Shown here: positions 2,322-8,819 of the stretch, in pieces
Layout of the letters: each line of letters begins with the position of its first letter
Position numbering within the stretch: the first letter of the stretch is position 1
NCBI GenBank assembly: GCA_027943245.1
Contig: JANDJZ010000077.1
Location: 48,345 to 112,344 of the forward strand
DNA: 64,000 nt
Source: Acanthamoeba sp. SK_2022b
Lineage: Eukaryota > Discosea > Longamoebia > Acanthamoebidae
Direction: 5' to 3'
The notes under the pieces: generated by a model
What the model saw: the letters and a program-made list of their open reading frames with translations, nothing else
Database searches by the model: none
Told to the model about the DNA's origin: nothing
Program-made: the position numbers and the translations under genes

Positions 2322-2597
2322 CTTCTCAAAACGAATTTTGCCTATTATTTATGAGATTGAGAGAACTTTTATTCATCTCTCCAAGCCACTCCCATACCTT
2401 GATTTCTGATGAGACATGAACTGGGTACATTGGACCACATCTACATCTTCTGCAAAGCCACACTTCTTTAATATCCCTCTTTGGAACCATCGTTTACGAT
2501 GATGATCAAGCAACTGAGGCCGTAGCACGCACTGCCCAGAAGTTTGGATATTGGCCAGCTGGCAGCATACACAGCGCAGGCGATGATGAGTGATGTT
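2322..2597. other. Gap between the SulP gene and the 5S gene; contains a dispersed repeat
   Basis: This holds the presumed 3' UTR of the transporter gene and the upstream flank of the split 5S gene. The stretch 2449-2488 shares a nearly identical 20-bp core with 18816-18855 downstream of the F-box gene. No coding region is credible here. Confidence 0.5.
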
Positions 2598-2632
2598 GGA
2601 TACGGCCACACTGCGCAGAAAGCACCGCTTCC
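2598..2632 (+). rRNA. 5S rRNA 5' fragment (nt 1-35), genomic flank of the insertion
   Basis: The 35 bases match the start of Acanthamoeba 5S rRNA as recalled (GGATACGGCC...). There is one difference, C for T at 5S position 12. The last 15 bases (gaaagcaccgcttcc, 2618-2632) match perfectly the first 15 bases of the downstream 5S part at 8721. This identifies them as the target-site duplication of the retrotransposon. The gene is interrupted and cannot give a mature 5S RNA. Confidence 0.85.
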
Positions 2633-2633
2633 A

Positions 2634-2669
2634 GGATACGGCCATACTGCGCAGAGAGCACCGCTTCCC
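2634..2669 (+). rRNA. Second 5S rRNA 5' fragment (nt 1-36), probably carried by the retrotransposon
   Basis: This is a second copy of 5S nucleotides 1-36, directly after the first and separated by a single A at 2633. It differs from the downstream 5S part inside the duplicated segment (gagagc against gaaagc). It is therefore less likely than 2598-2632 to be the genomic target flank. It is followed by eight A's and the element's untranslated leader. I interpret it as the 5' end of a chimeric 5S-element RNA that was reverse transcribed. Confidence 0.75.
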
Positions 2670-2762
2670 AAAAAAAACTTCCCGCCGCGAACAAGGCCAC
2701 AGCTCCTGCTCCCCCCCCTGAACTCGGGTACACCCAACTCAAGAGATGAAGTGCTATTTTGT

Positions 2763-4193
2763 ATGAAGCTTGGAACGGTCAATCCAAGGATAAAAAACAA
2801 TGCCAGAAGACCTAGTCTTCCGCCAAAACCGCGCACAGACAGCATCATAATTAATCATACAAAACACTCGCATCTTCTCTCAGAAAGATGGACAAGGACA
2901 CACCCACACTCTCTACCCATAAGCGAAAGCACGGAGATGAGCAGGAAGGCACCCGCACCTCAAAAACCACCCGCCCCGAGTCCAAATGTAACCCCCCCCA
3001 AATCACCAAAAAATTACCTCTCCCCCCAATTAACAAGAAAAAACCCACCCCACCGCCCAGCCCAACGACCAAGCAAGAGACTCATTGCAACCGAAACCGA
3101 TGAGGAGAACACCACCCCCAGACCCAGGCCAGGCCATGAAACGAACCCGATCCCAGTGCCCCAACCAACCCAAGATCCCAACTGTGGATGGGGCGCCAAA
3201 TACGCACAAGGCTGGGGTCAGGACTCAACCCCCACTGGGACCAGCACCTACTCATCAATCGAAGCCATCATCAACAAAATTCATAACACTACCCCAAGCA
3301 AAGACATTGAACAGGAGATTGCCAACGTCCTCAACTCCTATGTAGAAGCCAAGAACAAGTCCATGGAGAGGACAATGAAGGTATCGACGATCAAACTGGC
3401 AGTCCTCAGAGACGCAGTCATGAAGGCCAGAGGAGGCGGCACCCCCCAAGAAGAGGAAGACCCGACAGTCTCAGTTATAGTCGCTGAGAACGTCAAGGAG
3501 GACTGGAACGCAGTACGCGCCTTCTTCAACAACATCAGGGGACTCGACCTGGAGAACACCGTCCTGTTCCCGCAGACGAACAAACGTGCAGCGATCATAG
3601 CCTTTGAATCAGAAGAACACTGCACCCGCGCCCTCGACAAGATCCACAATGCCAGGAAGGAATGGCACATCGTCTCCTCCATCCCCTCACTAAAACAATC
3701 TGACTGTGCCCTCGACACCCCCCACACGGCTTACATCTACGCCCCAGACCTCCCACTAGAAGCTCTCAAGACAATTTCCCCCTCCCCCATCAAGTCGGCT
3801 AAAACAACCAACGGGTCCATCACAGTCTCGTTCTACAGGGCAGAAGACTCCGCCGCGTTCATCGCACTCCACTCCATTGAGACTCCCTTGGGACTGGTGA
3901 ACATCTCCAACTCCTACATTGGAAAGACAGAATTCAAGCTGCGCCTGAAAGGCACCCCGAAGAAGTGGCGCTCCTCCAACCTCCACAACTTCCTCAAGTC
4001 CCAAGGAGTCATCTTCAAGGAGGCGGAAATCGCGAGAAGCCCATTGGATGGACAGAACCTCTCCTACAGCTGGATCAAGTTCGACTCTGCCAAAGACATG
4101 GTCGAAGCCTCTAACAAGACCCTGATCACCATAACAGGAGAGAGACTAACGTGGGAAGAACCCAGAAAACGTGGAATTGGTCGTGGACATTAA
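2763..4193 (+). CDS. Retrotransposon ORF1 protein (nucleic-acid-binding, gag-like)
   Basis: The frame is open from 2544 through the 5S fragments to TAA at 4191-4193. The first ATG inside the element is at 2763; ATG 2937 is an alternative. The N-terminal third is basic and proline rich (many PPK and PPP clusters), suggesting RNA binding. From about 3450 to 4160 the protein becomes globular, with repeated beta-alpha segments that could be RRM-like folds. No CCHC zinc knuckle is visible, unlike many ORF1 proteins. In LINE elements this product coats the element RNA and acts as a chaperone. It overlaps ORF2 by 44 nt in the +1 frame, so the two products may be translationally linked. Identity rests mainly on position; the fold is a guess. 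Confidence 0.75.
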   Translation: MKLGTVNPRIKNNARRPSLPPKPRTDSIIINHTKHSHLLSERWTRTHPHSLPISESTEMSRKAPAPQKPPAPSPNVTPPKSPKNYLSPQLTRKNPPHRPAQRPSKRLIATETDEENTTPRPRPGHETNPIPVPQPTQDPNCGWGAKYAQGWGQDSTPTGTSTYSSIEAIINKIHNTTPSKDIEQEIANVLNSYVEAKNKSMERTMKVSTIKLAVLRDAVMKARGGGTPQEEEDPTVSVIVAENVKEDWNAVRAFFNNIRGLDLENTVLFPQTNKRAAIIAFESEEHCTRALDKIHNARKEWHIVSSIPSLKQSDCALDTPHTAYIYAPDLPLEALKTISPSPIKSAKTTNGSITVSFYRAEDSAAFIALHSIETPLGLVNISNSYIGKTEFKLRLKGTPKKWRSSNLHNFLKSQGVIFKEAEIARSPLDGQNLSYSWIKFDSAKDMVEASNKTLITITGERLTWEEPRKRGIGRGH

Positions 4194-7100
4194 TAACCCA
4201 ACATCCACACTCCCACCAAACCCTCTCCTGACAGTCGGCACATTAAACATACGAGGGGGCCTCCCCCAAAAAATGGACCACATCATACACCACTTCAATA
4301 AAAAACAACTCGACATACTCATCCTCACAGAAACCAAGACCTTTCACGAAGAATGGAGCAGAATCACCCCATACGGCTTTACTGTCACTCACAACGCCCC
4401 CTCAATTACCCAAAAAACAAGACAAGGAGGGTTAGCAGCACTATACCGCAACAACATCGCACACCTCATCACAACGGAACAGCTAAACCAAACCCACCAC
4501 CAACACCTCCTCCACATCTCAATCAGGGCCAACAACACCCCTGCCATGCATATAATAGGAGTCTACGCACCTCACAAAAACAGAAACTTCTTCAACAACA
4601 CAGTCCTTCCTATCACAAAGAAGTTAACGGAGTCAAACCCAACTATACTTATAGGCGACTTCAACGCGTGTGCACACAAGATAGACAAGAAAAACCCAAA
4701 AGGCTACATAAGCCCACACTTAATAAACCTAATGGAAACATGCGCGCTAAAAGATGCCTTCCGAGCACTCCACCCAACAAAACAAACCTTCTCCTGGACC
4801 AGATCTGGAAAGAACGGCAGTATCCAAGCTACTAGGATAGACACTGCACTAATATCTCACCACATAACCCCGATCAACGCCTCATACTCACCCACGCTGG
4901 TCGACACAGACCACCTAGCCTTCACATGCAGCTGGAGAAGAAACAACTACAACCCCTTCACCCCAGTGACTTACCGCAGAGCATTCAAAAGCAGACTTAC
5001 CCAAGAAGAGGCTATACTCTTCAATGAGCGGATCAGCAACTGCACCTACACTGACATTAGAGACAGAATTGCAACAGCGGCGGCCGCCACCATCCCAACC
5101 CCCCCTCCTAACAAAGCACGTAAACTAAACAAAGAAACCGCTAAACTTGTCAAAAAGTATGGCAAGCTCACGCGAAGCATCCATAGACTTTTAGCCACAG
5201 GCTCCCTCAAGCCAAAAGAAAGAGCACTTTTCTCAAGTAACGACAACAACGAATGGCTCACCGAAGCAAAAACCTCACAGAAATCACTCCGAAGACAGAT
5301 GCGCAAAGCAATCCGATCGCAAAATAAAATAAAAATAAACACAAACGTCATGAGACAGCGCAGAGATGCCAACCTCACTAACCAACTCCACTTCAAGAGA
5401 CTTAAATCACACCTACACCCAAGAACCAACTCCCTACCACTAAACGTGCTAAATGAGCACCACAAACTGGTCACAGACCCAAAGGTAATCAAAGACGTAA
5501 CCCGCACCTTCTGGTGTAGCTTGTTCACCAAAGGCCCTGCCCCAACAACCCCTATCCCAAACTGTTACACTAAAGAACGCCCACGCCTAACCATTAAAGA
5601 TAATGAACAGATAACCAGACCCATCACACTGCAAGAACTAAATGACACCCTCGCAAAGATAAAAACAGATTCAGCCCCAGGCCCAGATGAAATCAACAAC
5701 GCAATGCTCAAAGCCCTCAATGACAGAAACCGAGCAGATCTCCTCTCTTTCCTCAACTCAGCAATGACTGACCCTGCACTCCTGGACAACCTCAACAGCG
5801 CAAAAATCTGGACCATCCACAAGAGAAACGACAAAGCAAACCTAAACAACTACCGACCCATAGCACTCTGCCAAACAATATACAAACTCCTAACACTAAT
5901 AATCAATAAACGCCTCTACGAAGCAGTAGAACAGCACAACATCCTCTCCAAAGCCCAAGCAGCCTTTCGAAAAGGGAGGTCAACCCAACTACACATAATC
6001 ACCCTCCGCAATCTGATTGAGGAAGCCCTCACACTGAACCGCCCACTCTTTGCACTCTTTGTCGACCTGGAAAAAGCATATGACTCCCTGCCACACAGAG
6101 CCATAACACTTACCCTTCGCTACTACGGCGCCTCCCCGACTCTCCAAGAACTAATAAACAAATTGTACGACAATGCAAACACCACGGTGTGCACCCGCTA
6201 TGGTGACACAGCCCCCTTCCCAACGGACAAAGGAGTCAAACAAGGAGACCCTTTATCCCCTCTCCTCTGGAACCTATTCATCAACCCAGTAGTAGAACAG
6301 CTCCTACACACCCGCTCTGCTCACTCAACATCGCAAGGGGAAAAAATAGGCAACATGGCCTTCGCAGACGACCTCACCATACTCAGCAGCTCTGGTGCCG
6401 ACCTAGCCGAATCGCTGGCACTCTTCCAAAACTTCTGCAACTACCACAGACTCCAAATTAGCCCCAGTAAGTCCATCATTGCAACCACCTCACTAGAAAC
6501 CCTGTCCCTAGCAGTAGACACCCCAACAGGACCCCAACTCATACCCAACCTAGAAAAGAACAAAAGCGTCAAATACCTAGGCGCCCACATCCGGTTTGAC
6601 CGACGCAAACCCGATGAACACTCCCTCACAAAGGAGTTTATAAAGAAAGCAAACTTCATCTCATCAAAAAGGATGAGCGCAGAAGCCAAAGCACACTTCC
6701 TGAACACATATGCCTTCCCAACCATCCTCTACGACACCCCGTCTCGTCCCCTCACTAAAAAAGCAGCAAACAATATAGACTGCGCGGCACGCAGAGTTAT
6801 AATAAATGAACTGCACATCCGCAGCTGGTATGACAAAAACATTATGTACAGCCCAGATGGGACGGGCCTCTCGCTTACTGAATTGAGCACAGCCCAACGA
6901 TGGACTGCCCTATCCACCCTAACTACCATCTTCAATGGACCGGACTCACTAGCGCAGACCACAACGGCAAACAACCTAGCACTCTACCAAGACAAATCGC
7001 CAGACTTCCCCTTCCATGGCAAACCAATCTTGCGCCGAAACCTCCCCACCATAGCCGCCTTTATAGCAGCAGCTATAGAATGCGAGGTCCAAGTAATTTT

Positions 7101-8394
7101 CCCACACTTAGCACACCCAAACAACACCCACATGCAACCAACCCAACCCCCGCCGATCCCACCCACGGCCCACACGTTAGACGTCTTCACCGATGGGTCT
7201 TTGAAAAATAGAGCAGCGGGTAGTGGTGTGGTCTTTCACTCCCACCCAAAGCCAATCATACTAACCCACAGAACCCCTAGGGAACAATCAAATAACAACG
7301 CCGAGCTACACAGCATAGAAATTGCCCTGAAACACACGCCACTCGGCACCCCAGAAATCAGGATCTTTATGGACAGCCAATACGCCATAAAAACGGCACA
7401 AAACTGCCTAAAAGACTCCCCAGACATACACCACCTCACCCCAAATAGAGAGACCATCCTCAACATACGCAACCTAGCTAGCAAACACAACAAAATCACC
7501 TTCCACCACATCTACAGCCACGTCACCAAGAAGCTCAGCACTGATCCCAATAAATGGCAACCAAAGATCGAGGCGCAAAAAACAAACCTCCCCCTACACT
7601 ACCCCACCGCCTGCAAACTTAACAACCTAGCTGATGAGGCGGCAAGAAAAGGCGCAGACCTCCCGCCACCCCCCTCAGCCTACGCCCGAGAAAGGGTGAT
7701 CGTCCAAGACGGCTTCTCCTCCTCCCCAATCCCCAGACGGATCCTCCTACACAAATGGAAGGACCAATGGGACAGACCCCCCCCAGGAACCCCCAAGTGA
7801 AAAGCCCTAGCCAGCCACCCTGACATGGCCCTTTATGGCTTCTTACTTAGAGCCACTAAAAATCTCCTCCCCCTTCGAGCCAACCTTCACCAAACCTCCT
7901 CCAACCCAGCGCACGCAACCCCCACCTGCATCTGGTGCGAACACAACAACCAGGGACACAAACTGGAAGACCTGGACCATGTCCTAGCCTCCTGCCCAGC
8001 ACACGAGACTACACGACGTGAAGCACAAACGTCTCTAAACACCATCACAAAAAAACTGGACACTATCCCCCTTATCCCCACCGCCTCAGCTACAGACTGG
8101 CTGGGCATACAACATACCCCAAAAGGACACTCCGACAGCCACTACAAGACCTTCCACGCCATCCAGGCCACACTCCTCGCCACAAGCCACCGCATCTGGA
8201 TCGATCGGTGCCTCTACCTGAACGCCTTGGGCCTCACATGCTCTGCGCAGCGCAAGACAGCCCCTCCCGCCCCAGCAACAGCTGGGGTCGGAAAGGCTAG
8301 CGCATCGACAGGTGCAGGGACCCATGACGCAGACCAGGACCACCGCCGACCGAACCCAGCCCGACCAACCGATGACGTGACACCTGATGACTGA
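4150..8394 (+). CDS. Retrotransposon ORF2 polyprotein: APE endonuclease, reverse transcriptase, RNase H, CCHC
   Basis: The replication enzyme that nicks the 5S target and reverse transcribes the element RNA. Domains in order: apurinic-type endonuclease (GTLNIRG at about 4234, LTETK, GDFNA, RIDTALIS, TDH at about 4906); reverse transcriptase (PGPDEIN at about 5680, NNYRPIALC, LFVDLEKAYDS at about 6058, KQGDPLSPLLWN, active-site FADD at about 6361); RNase H (TDGS at about 7190, AELHS, MDSQY, H...YSH, LADEAARKGAD ending about 7660). The frame reads in register through a single TGA at 7798-7800. It continues to TGA at 8392-8394 and encodes a CX2C...HX4C zinc motif (CIWC...HVLASC) typical of LINE C termini. 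There is no ATG between the frame opening (4150) and 4273, downstream of the first endonuclease motif. All catalytic residues I can check are present. Confidence 0.92.
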
Positions 8395-8493
8395 CCACGA
8401 CAAGCCAACACAGCCAACACACCAACCCCGACCTTCACTGAGACTGCAGACCCGACCGACCAACCCAACCACCCTTCCTGGGCGCACTCTTTT

Positions 8494-8514
8494 CCCCTCT
8501 CAAGCTGAGAGGGG
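8494..8514. repeat. Perfect stem-loop in the retrotransposon 3' UTR
   Basis: CCCCTCTC and GAGAGGGG form an 8-bp stem with a 5-base loop, followed by TTTTT (8515-8519). It could be recognised by the reverse transcriptase, or could end RNA polymerase III transcription. Confidence 0.7.
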
Positions 8515-8571
8515 TTTTTAACGAGGCGCCCCACCGACGCAGACACCACACAAGCAGAGACGAAAACTTTC

Positions 8572-8587
8572 CCCTCCTGCAGGAGGG
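8572..8587. repeat. Perfect 16-bp palindrome in the retrotransposon 3' UTR
   Basis: CCCTCCTGCAGGAGGG is fully self-complementary and lies about 60 bp after the previous stem-loop. Together they make a compact structured 3' end, which non-LTR elements often use for recognition by their own reverse transcriptase. Confidence 0.65.
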
Positions 8588-8720
8588 ACGGTGACCAGCT
8601 CCCAGCCGAATCCAAGGACCAGAGTGAGAGACTGCCATCACCACAGTGGGGGCTACCGGGCTAACGCTAGAGGCCGCACAGGCACACGGTTAACCACTTT
8701 AACGACCATTACATGAACAT

Positions 8721-8819
8721 GAAAGCACCGCTTCCCATCCGAACAGCGAAGTTAAGCTGCGCCAGGCGGTGTTAGTACTGGGGTGGGCGACCACCCGGGA
8801 ATCCACCGTGCCGTATCCT
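8721..8819 (+). rRNA. 5S rRNA 3' part (nt 21-119)
   Basis: These 99 bases continue the 5S gene after the insertion (…GTTAAGCTGCGCC, GGCGACCACCCGGGAATCC, ending CCGTATCCT). Together with nt 1-35 at 2598-2632 (15-nt overlap) they make a 119-nt 5S RNA, the size expected for Acanthamoeba. The internal control region lies in this half, now more than 6 kb from the natural start site. A T run at 8825-8828 is the likely RNA polymerase III terminator. Confidence 0.93.

What the first reader, a model, noticed from the sequence alone, without database searches (positions are those of the whole stretch)
2598..8819. Retrotransposon inserted in a 5S rRNA gene carries its own copy of the 5S 5' end
The 5' flank (5S nt 1-35) and the 3' flank (5S nt 21-119) share a perfect 15-bp duplication. 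Directly after the flank, separated by one A, is a second 5S nt 1-36 copy with a private mutation in the duplicated part. This head therefore seems to belong to the element rather than the target. The simplest reading is that the transposition RNA began at the 5S transcription start of a previously occupied 5S gene, so the element uses the host gene's start site. It was then fully reverse transcribed and re-inserted at the same 5S position. This would make a self-propagating 5S-LINE chimeric RNA.
Basis: partly seen in the sequence, partly recalled or inferred. Interest (0 to 1): 0.9.

Follow-up and report, generated by a model that had tools for sequence, protein, structure and literature searches.

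The report
5S-gene LINE with copied 5S head
A mobile element that lands at one spot in an amoeba's 5S ribosomal RNA genes has, in this one copy, an extra piece of 5S sequence at its front end, which suggests that its RNA can begin inside the host gene it occupies.

Summary
A LINE (ORF1; ORF2 with AP-type endonuclease, RT and RNase H) sits in a dispersed 5S gene with a target-site duplication of 5S nt 21-35: 5S 1-35, one A, a second 5S 1-36, A8, element.
In the window's genome, 12 of 12 young copies found lie in 5S genes at every readable end. Nine of 10 young 3' ends join 5S exactly at nt 21; the tenth is deleted. Only the window copy has a complete second head (1 of 9 independent 5' junctions); three others have 3-6 5S-like nt before the A-run, five none.
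The inner head is RNA-like: it starts exactly at 5S +1, lacks the upstream block that precedes the outer copy, and was not copied from the outer copy. It ends at nt 36, next to the family's insertion boundary, which favours a donor 5S/LINE co-transcript over a jump to 5S rRNA, as proposed for R2 copies with tandem 28S duplications.
'Self-propagating from the 5S start' goes too far: a sister family outside 5S starts at the same A-run without a head, the 5S internal promoter is displaced, and a T4 lies about 125 nt from the start. Known mechanism; new host, enzyme type and target.

The parts
2566..2597 (+). conserved upstream block (-32 to -1) of host 5S genes, before the outer 5S copy
   Evidence: matrix from 39 distinct intact 5S flanks; this site scores 24.1, 0 of 20,000 random window positions as high; the 32 nt before the inner head score -22.5
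2598..2632 (+). left target flank: 5S nt 1-35, variant T12C
2618..2632 (+). target-site duplication, left copy (5S nt 21-35)
2633..2633 (+). single extra A between the two 5S copies, probably non-templated
   Evidence: the base before +1 is T (33) or C (6) in 39 intact genes, never A
2634..2669 (+). second 5S head, nt 1-36, with A23G; probably RNA-derived
2670..2677 (+). A8: conserved 5' boundary of the element body (A4 to A8 in other copies)
2670..8720 (+). body of the site-specific LINE
2769..2788 (+). 5' UTR hairpin CTTGGA...TCCAAG, kept in the sister family as CTTGGG...CCCAAG; preceded by conserved TTTT at 2757-2760
   Evidence: 12 of 12 sequences aligned
2937..4193 (+). ORF1 (frame open from 2544; in-frame ATGs at 2763 and 2937), no Pfam match
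4171..7800 (+). ORF2: AP endonuclease (aa 23-248), RT (551-807, FADD), RNase H (1004-1120); stop TGA at 7798-7800
7825..8394 (+). frame after the TGA with a Cys/His-rich stretch, no Pfam match
8721..8819 (+). right target flank: 5S nt 21-119, identical to the 119-nt query; first 15 nt = target-site duplication

Best explanation
The element is a LINE that inserts by target-primed reverse transcription at one site in 5S genes (bottom strand cut at nt 20/21, top strand at nt 35/36; inferred from junctions). The second 5S head at 2634-2669 was part of the template RNA. That RNA came from a donor copy already sitting in another 5S gene; its transcript began at that gene's 5S +1 nucleotide and ran through 5S 1-36 into the element. 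Reverse transcriptase copied it to the 5' end and one base was added. The cDNA end was then joined to the top strand at nt 35 without annealing to the homologous target, so the head was duplicated. When annealing does happen the head collapses into the target and the junction looks clean; partial copies leave TCCG or GCTTCCG. Shown: site specificity, junctions, RNA-like start, independence of head and flank. Inferred: the donor co-transcript and the annealing. Starts at 5S +1 are probably an occasional route; most template RNAs may start at the A-run.
For: Twelve of 12 young copies found have 5S sequence at every readable end; 9 of 10 young 3' ends are exact at nt 21, the tenth (C924) deleted; two old relics show the same boundaries. 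The outer copy has the 5S upstream block, the inner head has none and starts exactly at +1. Head differs from flank at nt 12 and 23 and contains nt 36, which the flank lacks; T12C is a standing 5S variant (11 places), so the head was not copied from the flank. In the window, C385 and C647 (and C878 on one reading) the 5S-like extra sequence ends at nt 35 or 36, the insertion boundary itself; a sister copy outside 5S has an unrelated extra, TGGGAG. All 8 distinct occupied 5S flanks keep the upstream block (6.6 to 24.7; C385 after a 1-nt shift), so a start at +1 in an occupied gene is possible. R2 precedent: PMC3774820 (abstract, section 10 and part 1 of 2 of the Discussion read) reports tandem 13-28 nt 28S duplications, with deletions or non-templated nucleotides in some, when the template RNA keeps upstream 28S.
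Against: Only one complete head among 9 independent 5' junctions. The sister family, inserted outside 5S genes, starts at the homologous A(n)CTTC in C932 and C427, pointing to an element-owned start. No copy with the donor junction CTTCC-C-A8 was found (that pattern misses short or altered junctions such as C721 and C660); before the A-run the others have G (6 of 8) or nothing (2 of 8). C878's ATCCG can equally be read as retained target, 5S nt 37-41 with one C lost. The partial heads are only 3-6 nt. The 5S internal promoter (position recalled) is displaced by 6 kb; T4 at 2757 is conserved. The upstream block is not universal: 31 of 39 intact genes exceed the 99.9% null level in leave-one-out scoring, and shared ancestry of 5S copies may add to its conservation. 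No RNA data.
Confidence: 0.47

Rival explanations
1. Template switch: element RNA starts at its own A-run; on reaching the 5' end the reverse transcriptase jumped to a mature 5S rRNA (or a 1-36 fragment) and copied it to +1.
For: Small-RNA/LINE chimeras including 5S are documented (PMC13174262 and PMC4476161, passages only). The start at +1 and the canonical C36 fit. The sister family starts at the A-run. One complete head in 9 junctions fits a rare accident.
Against: The jump would have to land at nt 36, next to the insertion boundary (naively 3 of 119 positions), and similarly for the partial heads of C385 and C647. In mammals the 5S parts of 5S/L1 chimeras are typically antisense and truncated at nt 46 or 90. 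A23G is not in the canonical 5S sequence.
Confidence: 0.28
2. Junction extras are non-templated additions, slipped copies or retained bits of the target's own end made during second-strand priming; the window head was copied from some 5S DNA during repair.
For: The sister copy C427 outside 5S also has 6 extra nt (TGGGAG) before its A-run; the G before the A-run in 6 of 8 other junctions could be a cap-copied base; C878's ATCCG matches 5S nt 37-41.
Against: DNA copying would not be expected to stop exactly at 5S +1, and the flank has T12C and lacks nt 36. TCC before the G in 3 of 3 partial cases is unlikely as random addition (about 4-6 in a million under simple composition; computed after seeing the data, and weaker if C878 is retained target).
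Confidence: 0.15
3. The target was already a tandem of a partial 5S copy and a 5S gene before the insertion.
For: Partial 5S copies next to 5S genes exist in this genome: C615 has 5S 1-22 plus 24 nt before an intact gene.
Against: The outer copy ends exactly at nt 35, the family's usual cut; the inner copy lacks the upstream block, whereas the intact gene in C615 keeps one. No second tandem of this kind and no paralogue of the window's flank beyond 35 bp was found. The empty allele itself could not be examined.
Confidence: 0.07

Closest known systems
R2 non-LTR retrotransposons (28S rDNA) with upstream 28S kept on the template RNA
   Same: Site-specific insertion in an rRNA gene; [quoted passage not shown]
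   Different: There an HDV-like ribozyme sets the RNA end, and R2 has a restriction-like endonuclease (recalled); here AP endonuclease, no ribozyme found, and the head begins at the transcription start of a Pol III gene
Mutsu (zebrafish 5S-gene LINE)
   Same: LINE with two ORFs, about 5.5 kb, inserted in 5S genes (passages in PMC11202950 and PMC3706591)
   Different: Host is a fish; insertion position, clade and 5' junctions could not be compared (a paper on them, PMC5340908, is not held; the original description was not looked up)
U6/LINE-1 and 5S/LINE-1 chimeric insertions
   Same: Small RNA joined to the 5' end of a LINE in one event
   Different: LINEs that do not target the small-RNA gene; 5S parts typically antisense and truncated at nt 46/90 (PMC13174262, passages)
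SINE3 / 5S-headed SINEs, Cassandra
   Same: Retroelements carrying 5S sequence
   Different: Recalled to keep the 5S internal promoter; here only nt 1-36

Membership tests
Site-specific non-LTR retrotransposon (LINE) | Several copies at one position of a multicopy gene, with target-site duplication | tested here: met
   12 of 12 young copies in 5S at readable ends; 9 of 10 young 3' ends exact at nt 21, one deleted
Site-specific non-LTR retrotransposon (LINE) | Reverse transcriptase and endonuclease in ORF2 | tested here: met
   PF00078, PF03372, PF14529, PF00075
R2 clade | C-terminal restriction-like endonuclease, single ORF (recalled) | tested here: not met
   N-terminal AP-type endonuclease, two ORFs; the best PDB sequence matches are R2 proteins over the RT region only
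R2 clade | HDV-like ribozyme at the 5' end | tested here: inconclusive
   No Rfam ribozyme in 2550-3100 up to E 5; no full 7-pair complement to 5S 1-7 in the first 700 nt of the window copy; no structural search of the pseudoknot
[quoted passage not shown]
   Window copy complete; C385 and C647 partial, C878 ambiguous
Mutsu (5S LINE of fish) | Insertion in 5S genes | tested here: met
Mutsu (5S LINE of fish) | Phylogenetic placement with Mutsu | not tested
   No Mutsu sequence at hand; no tree of LINE clades was built
   1 of 9 independent 5' junctions
   No RNA data

The most novel reading that the evidence does not exclude
An AP-endonuclease LINE whose full-length RNA routinely starts at the transcription start of the 5S gene it occupies, set there by the 5S upstream block. 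The head is normally hidden because it anneals to the next 5S target, so the host gene's start site serves as the element's promoter and homology guide.
Probability: 0.2. Interest if true: 0.8.

Novelty: new variant of a known kind. Interest (0 to 1): 0.5.

Why it matters
If the donor co-transcript reading holds, the R2 trick of keeping target sequence on the template RNA has arisen in a LINE with a different endonuclease, in a Pol III gene, in an amoeba, with the RNA end set by a transcription start instead of a ribozyme. It also gives a compact natural system (dispersed 5S genes, exact 3' junctions, several young copies) for asking how LINE 5' ends are joined, a poorly understood step.

Tried and rejected
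Searched for a donor with a second head or the junction CTTCC-C-A8: none besides the window (exact patterns). A23G as a marker of the donor: seen also in the intact variant 5S gene C829 and in a degenerate 5S piece in L010, but post-insertion mutation is possible too, so not used. HDV-like ribozyme cutting at 5S +1: no support. Relatives in viral contigs and GTDB genomes: none confirmed (pattern-based scans). Papers on the 5S promoter of Acanthamoeba: none among the 12 of 48 listed. Empty site for the window copy: only the window itself and a 35-bp match. A likely paralogous empty site was found for copy C660 (L069: about 83 nt upstream and 95 nt downstream of the 5S gene shared). Host name: one protein search gave no organism; 'Acanthamoeba' rests on recall of its 5S sequence.

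Errors of mine and rows dropped. A first 3'-junction pattern was wrong by one base and gave 0 matches; one search replaced it. In one search the TSD comparison was off by one base; one search repeats it correctly. The C385 upstream block scored -18.0 because of a 1-nt insertion and 24.7 after a shift. The ORF1 query was out of frame, so ORF1 was never compared between families. The C660 row of the call-60 5' table is misaligned (46%, internal deletion) and was not used. C80 shares 1360 identical upstream bases with C924 and was counted with it as one 5' event; C419, C351a and C351b have no usable 5' end and were left out of the 5' count. Weak RT-like matches near 5S genes in L021, L022 and L030 were not followed. 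Of 45 matches, the other diverged RT families (about 28-33% identity) were not examined for target sites. On this re-check I mended 11 of 11 to 12 of 12 copies, added the second reading of C878, and for that lowered the best explanation from 0.50 to 0.47 and raised two rivals (0.27 to 0.28, 0.13 to 0.15).

Full report
What is there. The window lies in a 44.9-Mb genome of 1129 contigs in which 5S genes are dispersed; 40 perfect full-length copies were scored of 143 candidates. The host is probably Acanthamoeba (recall of its 5S sequence; no tool named it). At 2598-8819 a LINE sits inside one 5S gene. Reading from the left: 5S nt 1-35 with T12C (2598-2632); one A (2633); 5S nt 1-36 with A23G (2634-2669); A8; body to 8720; then 5S nt 21-119 (8721-8819). 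The 15-bp duplication (nt 21-35) is exact. ORF2 carries an AP-type endonuclease, reverse transcriptase and RNase H; ORF1 has no Pfam match. ORF2 ends at a TGA at 7798, with a Cys/His-rich frame after it.

Other copies. DNA searches with the 5' and 3' ends each found 10 places above 90% identity. Together these are 12 young copies: C913 (window), C647, C385, C878, C924, C80, C721, C660, C539, C419 and two on C351. All 12 have 5S sequence at every end that can be read. An exact pattern finds 9 3' junctions at nt 21, reading ...ACATGAACAT|GAAAGCACC; the tenth young 3' end, C924, has lost its last part and joins 5S near nt 54. An older copy on C351 (about 70% DNA identity) has the same junction against a decayed 5S.

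Five-prime junctions (nine independent events, C80 counted with C924). Window: 35 + A + 5S 1-36 + A8. C385: 35 + GGCTTCCG + A8. C647: 35 + GTTTCCG + A8. C878: 35 + ATCCG + A7. C924/C80: 35 + G + A7. C721: 35 + G + A4. C660: 34 + G + A7. C539: 35 + A5. Old relic on C437 (L065): 35 + A8. One of nine has a complete second head, three have a few 5S-like bases (C878's may instead be retained target, nt 37-41), and five have none. C385 and C878 differ by 0.19% and share a 470-base deletion yet have different upstream flanks, so their differing extras probably date from insertion.

Why the head is probably RNA-derived. Intact 5S genes (39 distinct flanks) share a block at -32 to -1 ending in TGTT; 31 of 39 exceed the 99.9% null level in leave-one-out scoring, 8 do not. 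The outer copy has it (24.1; 0 of 20,000 random positions as high); the inner head has not (-22.5; 66% of random positions as high). The inner head starts exactly at +1. It was not copied from the outer flank: the flank carries T12C, a variant also present at ten other places, and lacks nt 36.

Where the RNA came from. Two sources fit an end at +1: a chimeric transcript from an already occupied 5S gene, or a jump to 5S rRNA. The boundary argues for the first: in the window, C385 and C647 (and perhaps C878) the 5S part ends at nt 35 or 36, where the family inserts. A jump to free 5S rRNA has no reason to land there (3 of 119 positions naively; computed after seeing the data). R2 elements show the same pattern: where template RNA keeps upstream 28S, junctions are mostly uniform but some copies have tandem 13-28 nt duplications, with extra bases in some (PMC3774820). 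All 8 distinct occupied flanks keep the 5S upstream block (6.6, C539, to 24.7, C385 after a 1-nt shift).

What speaks against a self-propagating chimera. A sister family (C932: 34% protein identity) inserts elsewhere: C932 has a 16-bp duplication TTGCACATCAAAAGAA and C427 a 9-bp one, ATTTGAGCC. Their 5' ends begin AACTTC and AAAACTTC (C427 after an extra TGGGAG), homologous to A8-CTTCC in the 5S family; in a third copy, C800, the resemblance begins by eye about 20 nt further in. So the normal RNA start is probably at the A-run. The T4 at 2757-2760 is conserved in 12 of 12 aligned sequences of both families, lies about 125 nt from +1 in a donor with one head, and should stop Pol III; further runs are at 5189, 5228, 7097, 8490 and 8515. 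The 5S internal promoter (known from other eukaryotes, recalled) is displaced by the insertion. The head's C before A8 has no counterpart in the other eight junctions.

Pre-existing tandem. Partial 5S copies do occur (C615), but the outer copy ends at the exact cut site and the inner one lacks upstream sequence. The window's upstream flank has no paralogue beyond a 35-bp match.

Known or new. LINEs in 5S genes are known from zebrafish (Mutsu; passages in PMC11202950 and PMC3706591), and Jockey-like elements are associated with 5S arrays in a beetle (PMC11202950). A U2-gene LINE is known from Acanthamoeba castellanii (PMC4640811, passages). Searches bearing on a 5S-targeting LINE in Acanthamoeba showed none among the papers listed (20 of 103; 23: 5 of 5; 31: 15 of 1,491; 43: 12 of 128; 64: 3 of 3; 72: 12 of 211). 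Repbase Reports, which hold Acanthamoeba LINE entries (cited in PMC4640811), were not available, so the family may already be listed there.

Verdict. Observation confirmed; mechanism partly supported; the strong claim of a self-propagating chimera is not supported. Interest 0.5.

Noticed in passing
2757-2800 and L065, L070, L071, L074: 5' UTR block TTTTGTWTGAA-CTTGG..CCAAG is conserved between two LINE families about 34% alike in protein; the hairpin's closing pair changes A-U to G-C together, suggesting an RNA element.
   Followed up: partly
5S genes, -32 to -1 (39 distinct flanks): Most dispersed 5S genes (31 of 39) share an upstream block, roughly GGGACANCAAAGGNGATG...TGTT, that may be an external promoter element.
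   Followed up: partly
element copies (5' and 3' segments): Differences between copies are mostly transitions (181 of 211 and 155 of 182 biallelic sites), 127 and 97 of them at CpG-type sites, suggesting methylation-linked mutation. The in-frame stops of seven young 5S-family ORF2 matches are all TGA (11); a 76-residue piece of C419 has one TAA and the old C351 copy one TGA and two TAA.
   Followed up: partly
G000 C385 and C878 (L033, L034): Two copies 0.19% apart share a 470-base internal deletion but have different upstream flanks, so a defective copy was probably mobilised in trans.
   Followed up: no
G000 C924 and C80 (L035, L036, L048, L050): Same 5' flank (1360 identical bases) but different 3' flanks, suggesting recombination between occupied 5S loci.
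   Followed up: partly
G000 C615 (L017), C660 (L040, L069): Partial and inverted 5S fragments lie beside 5S genes, so 5S loci seem to rearrange often.
   Followed up: no
G000 C351:28600-31750: An old and a young copy of the element lie head to head in opposite orientation, the young one cut at its 5' end.
   Followed up: no
P0001: The closest protein in the large database (37% identity over 63% of ORF2, RT plus RNase H) is on a 3151-base contig labelled as a Steroidobacteraceae MAG; probably eukaryotic contamination.
   Followed up: no
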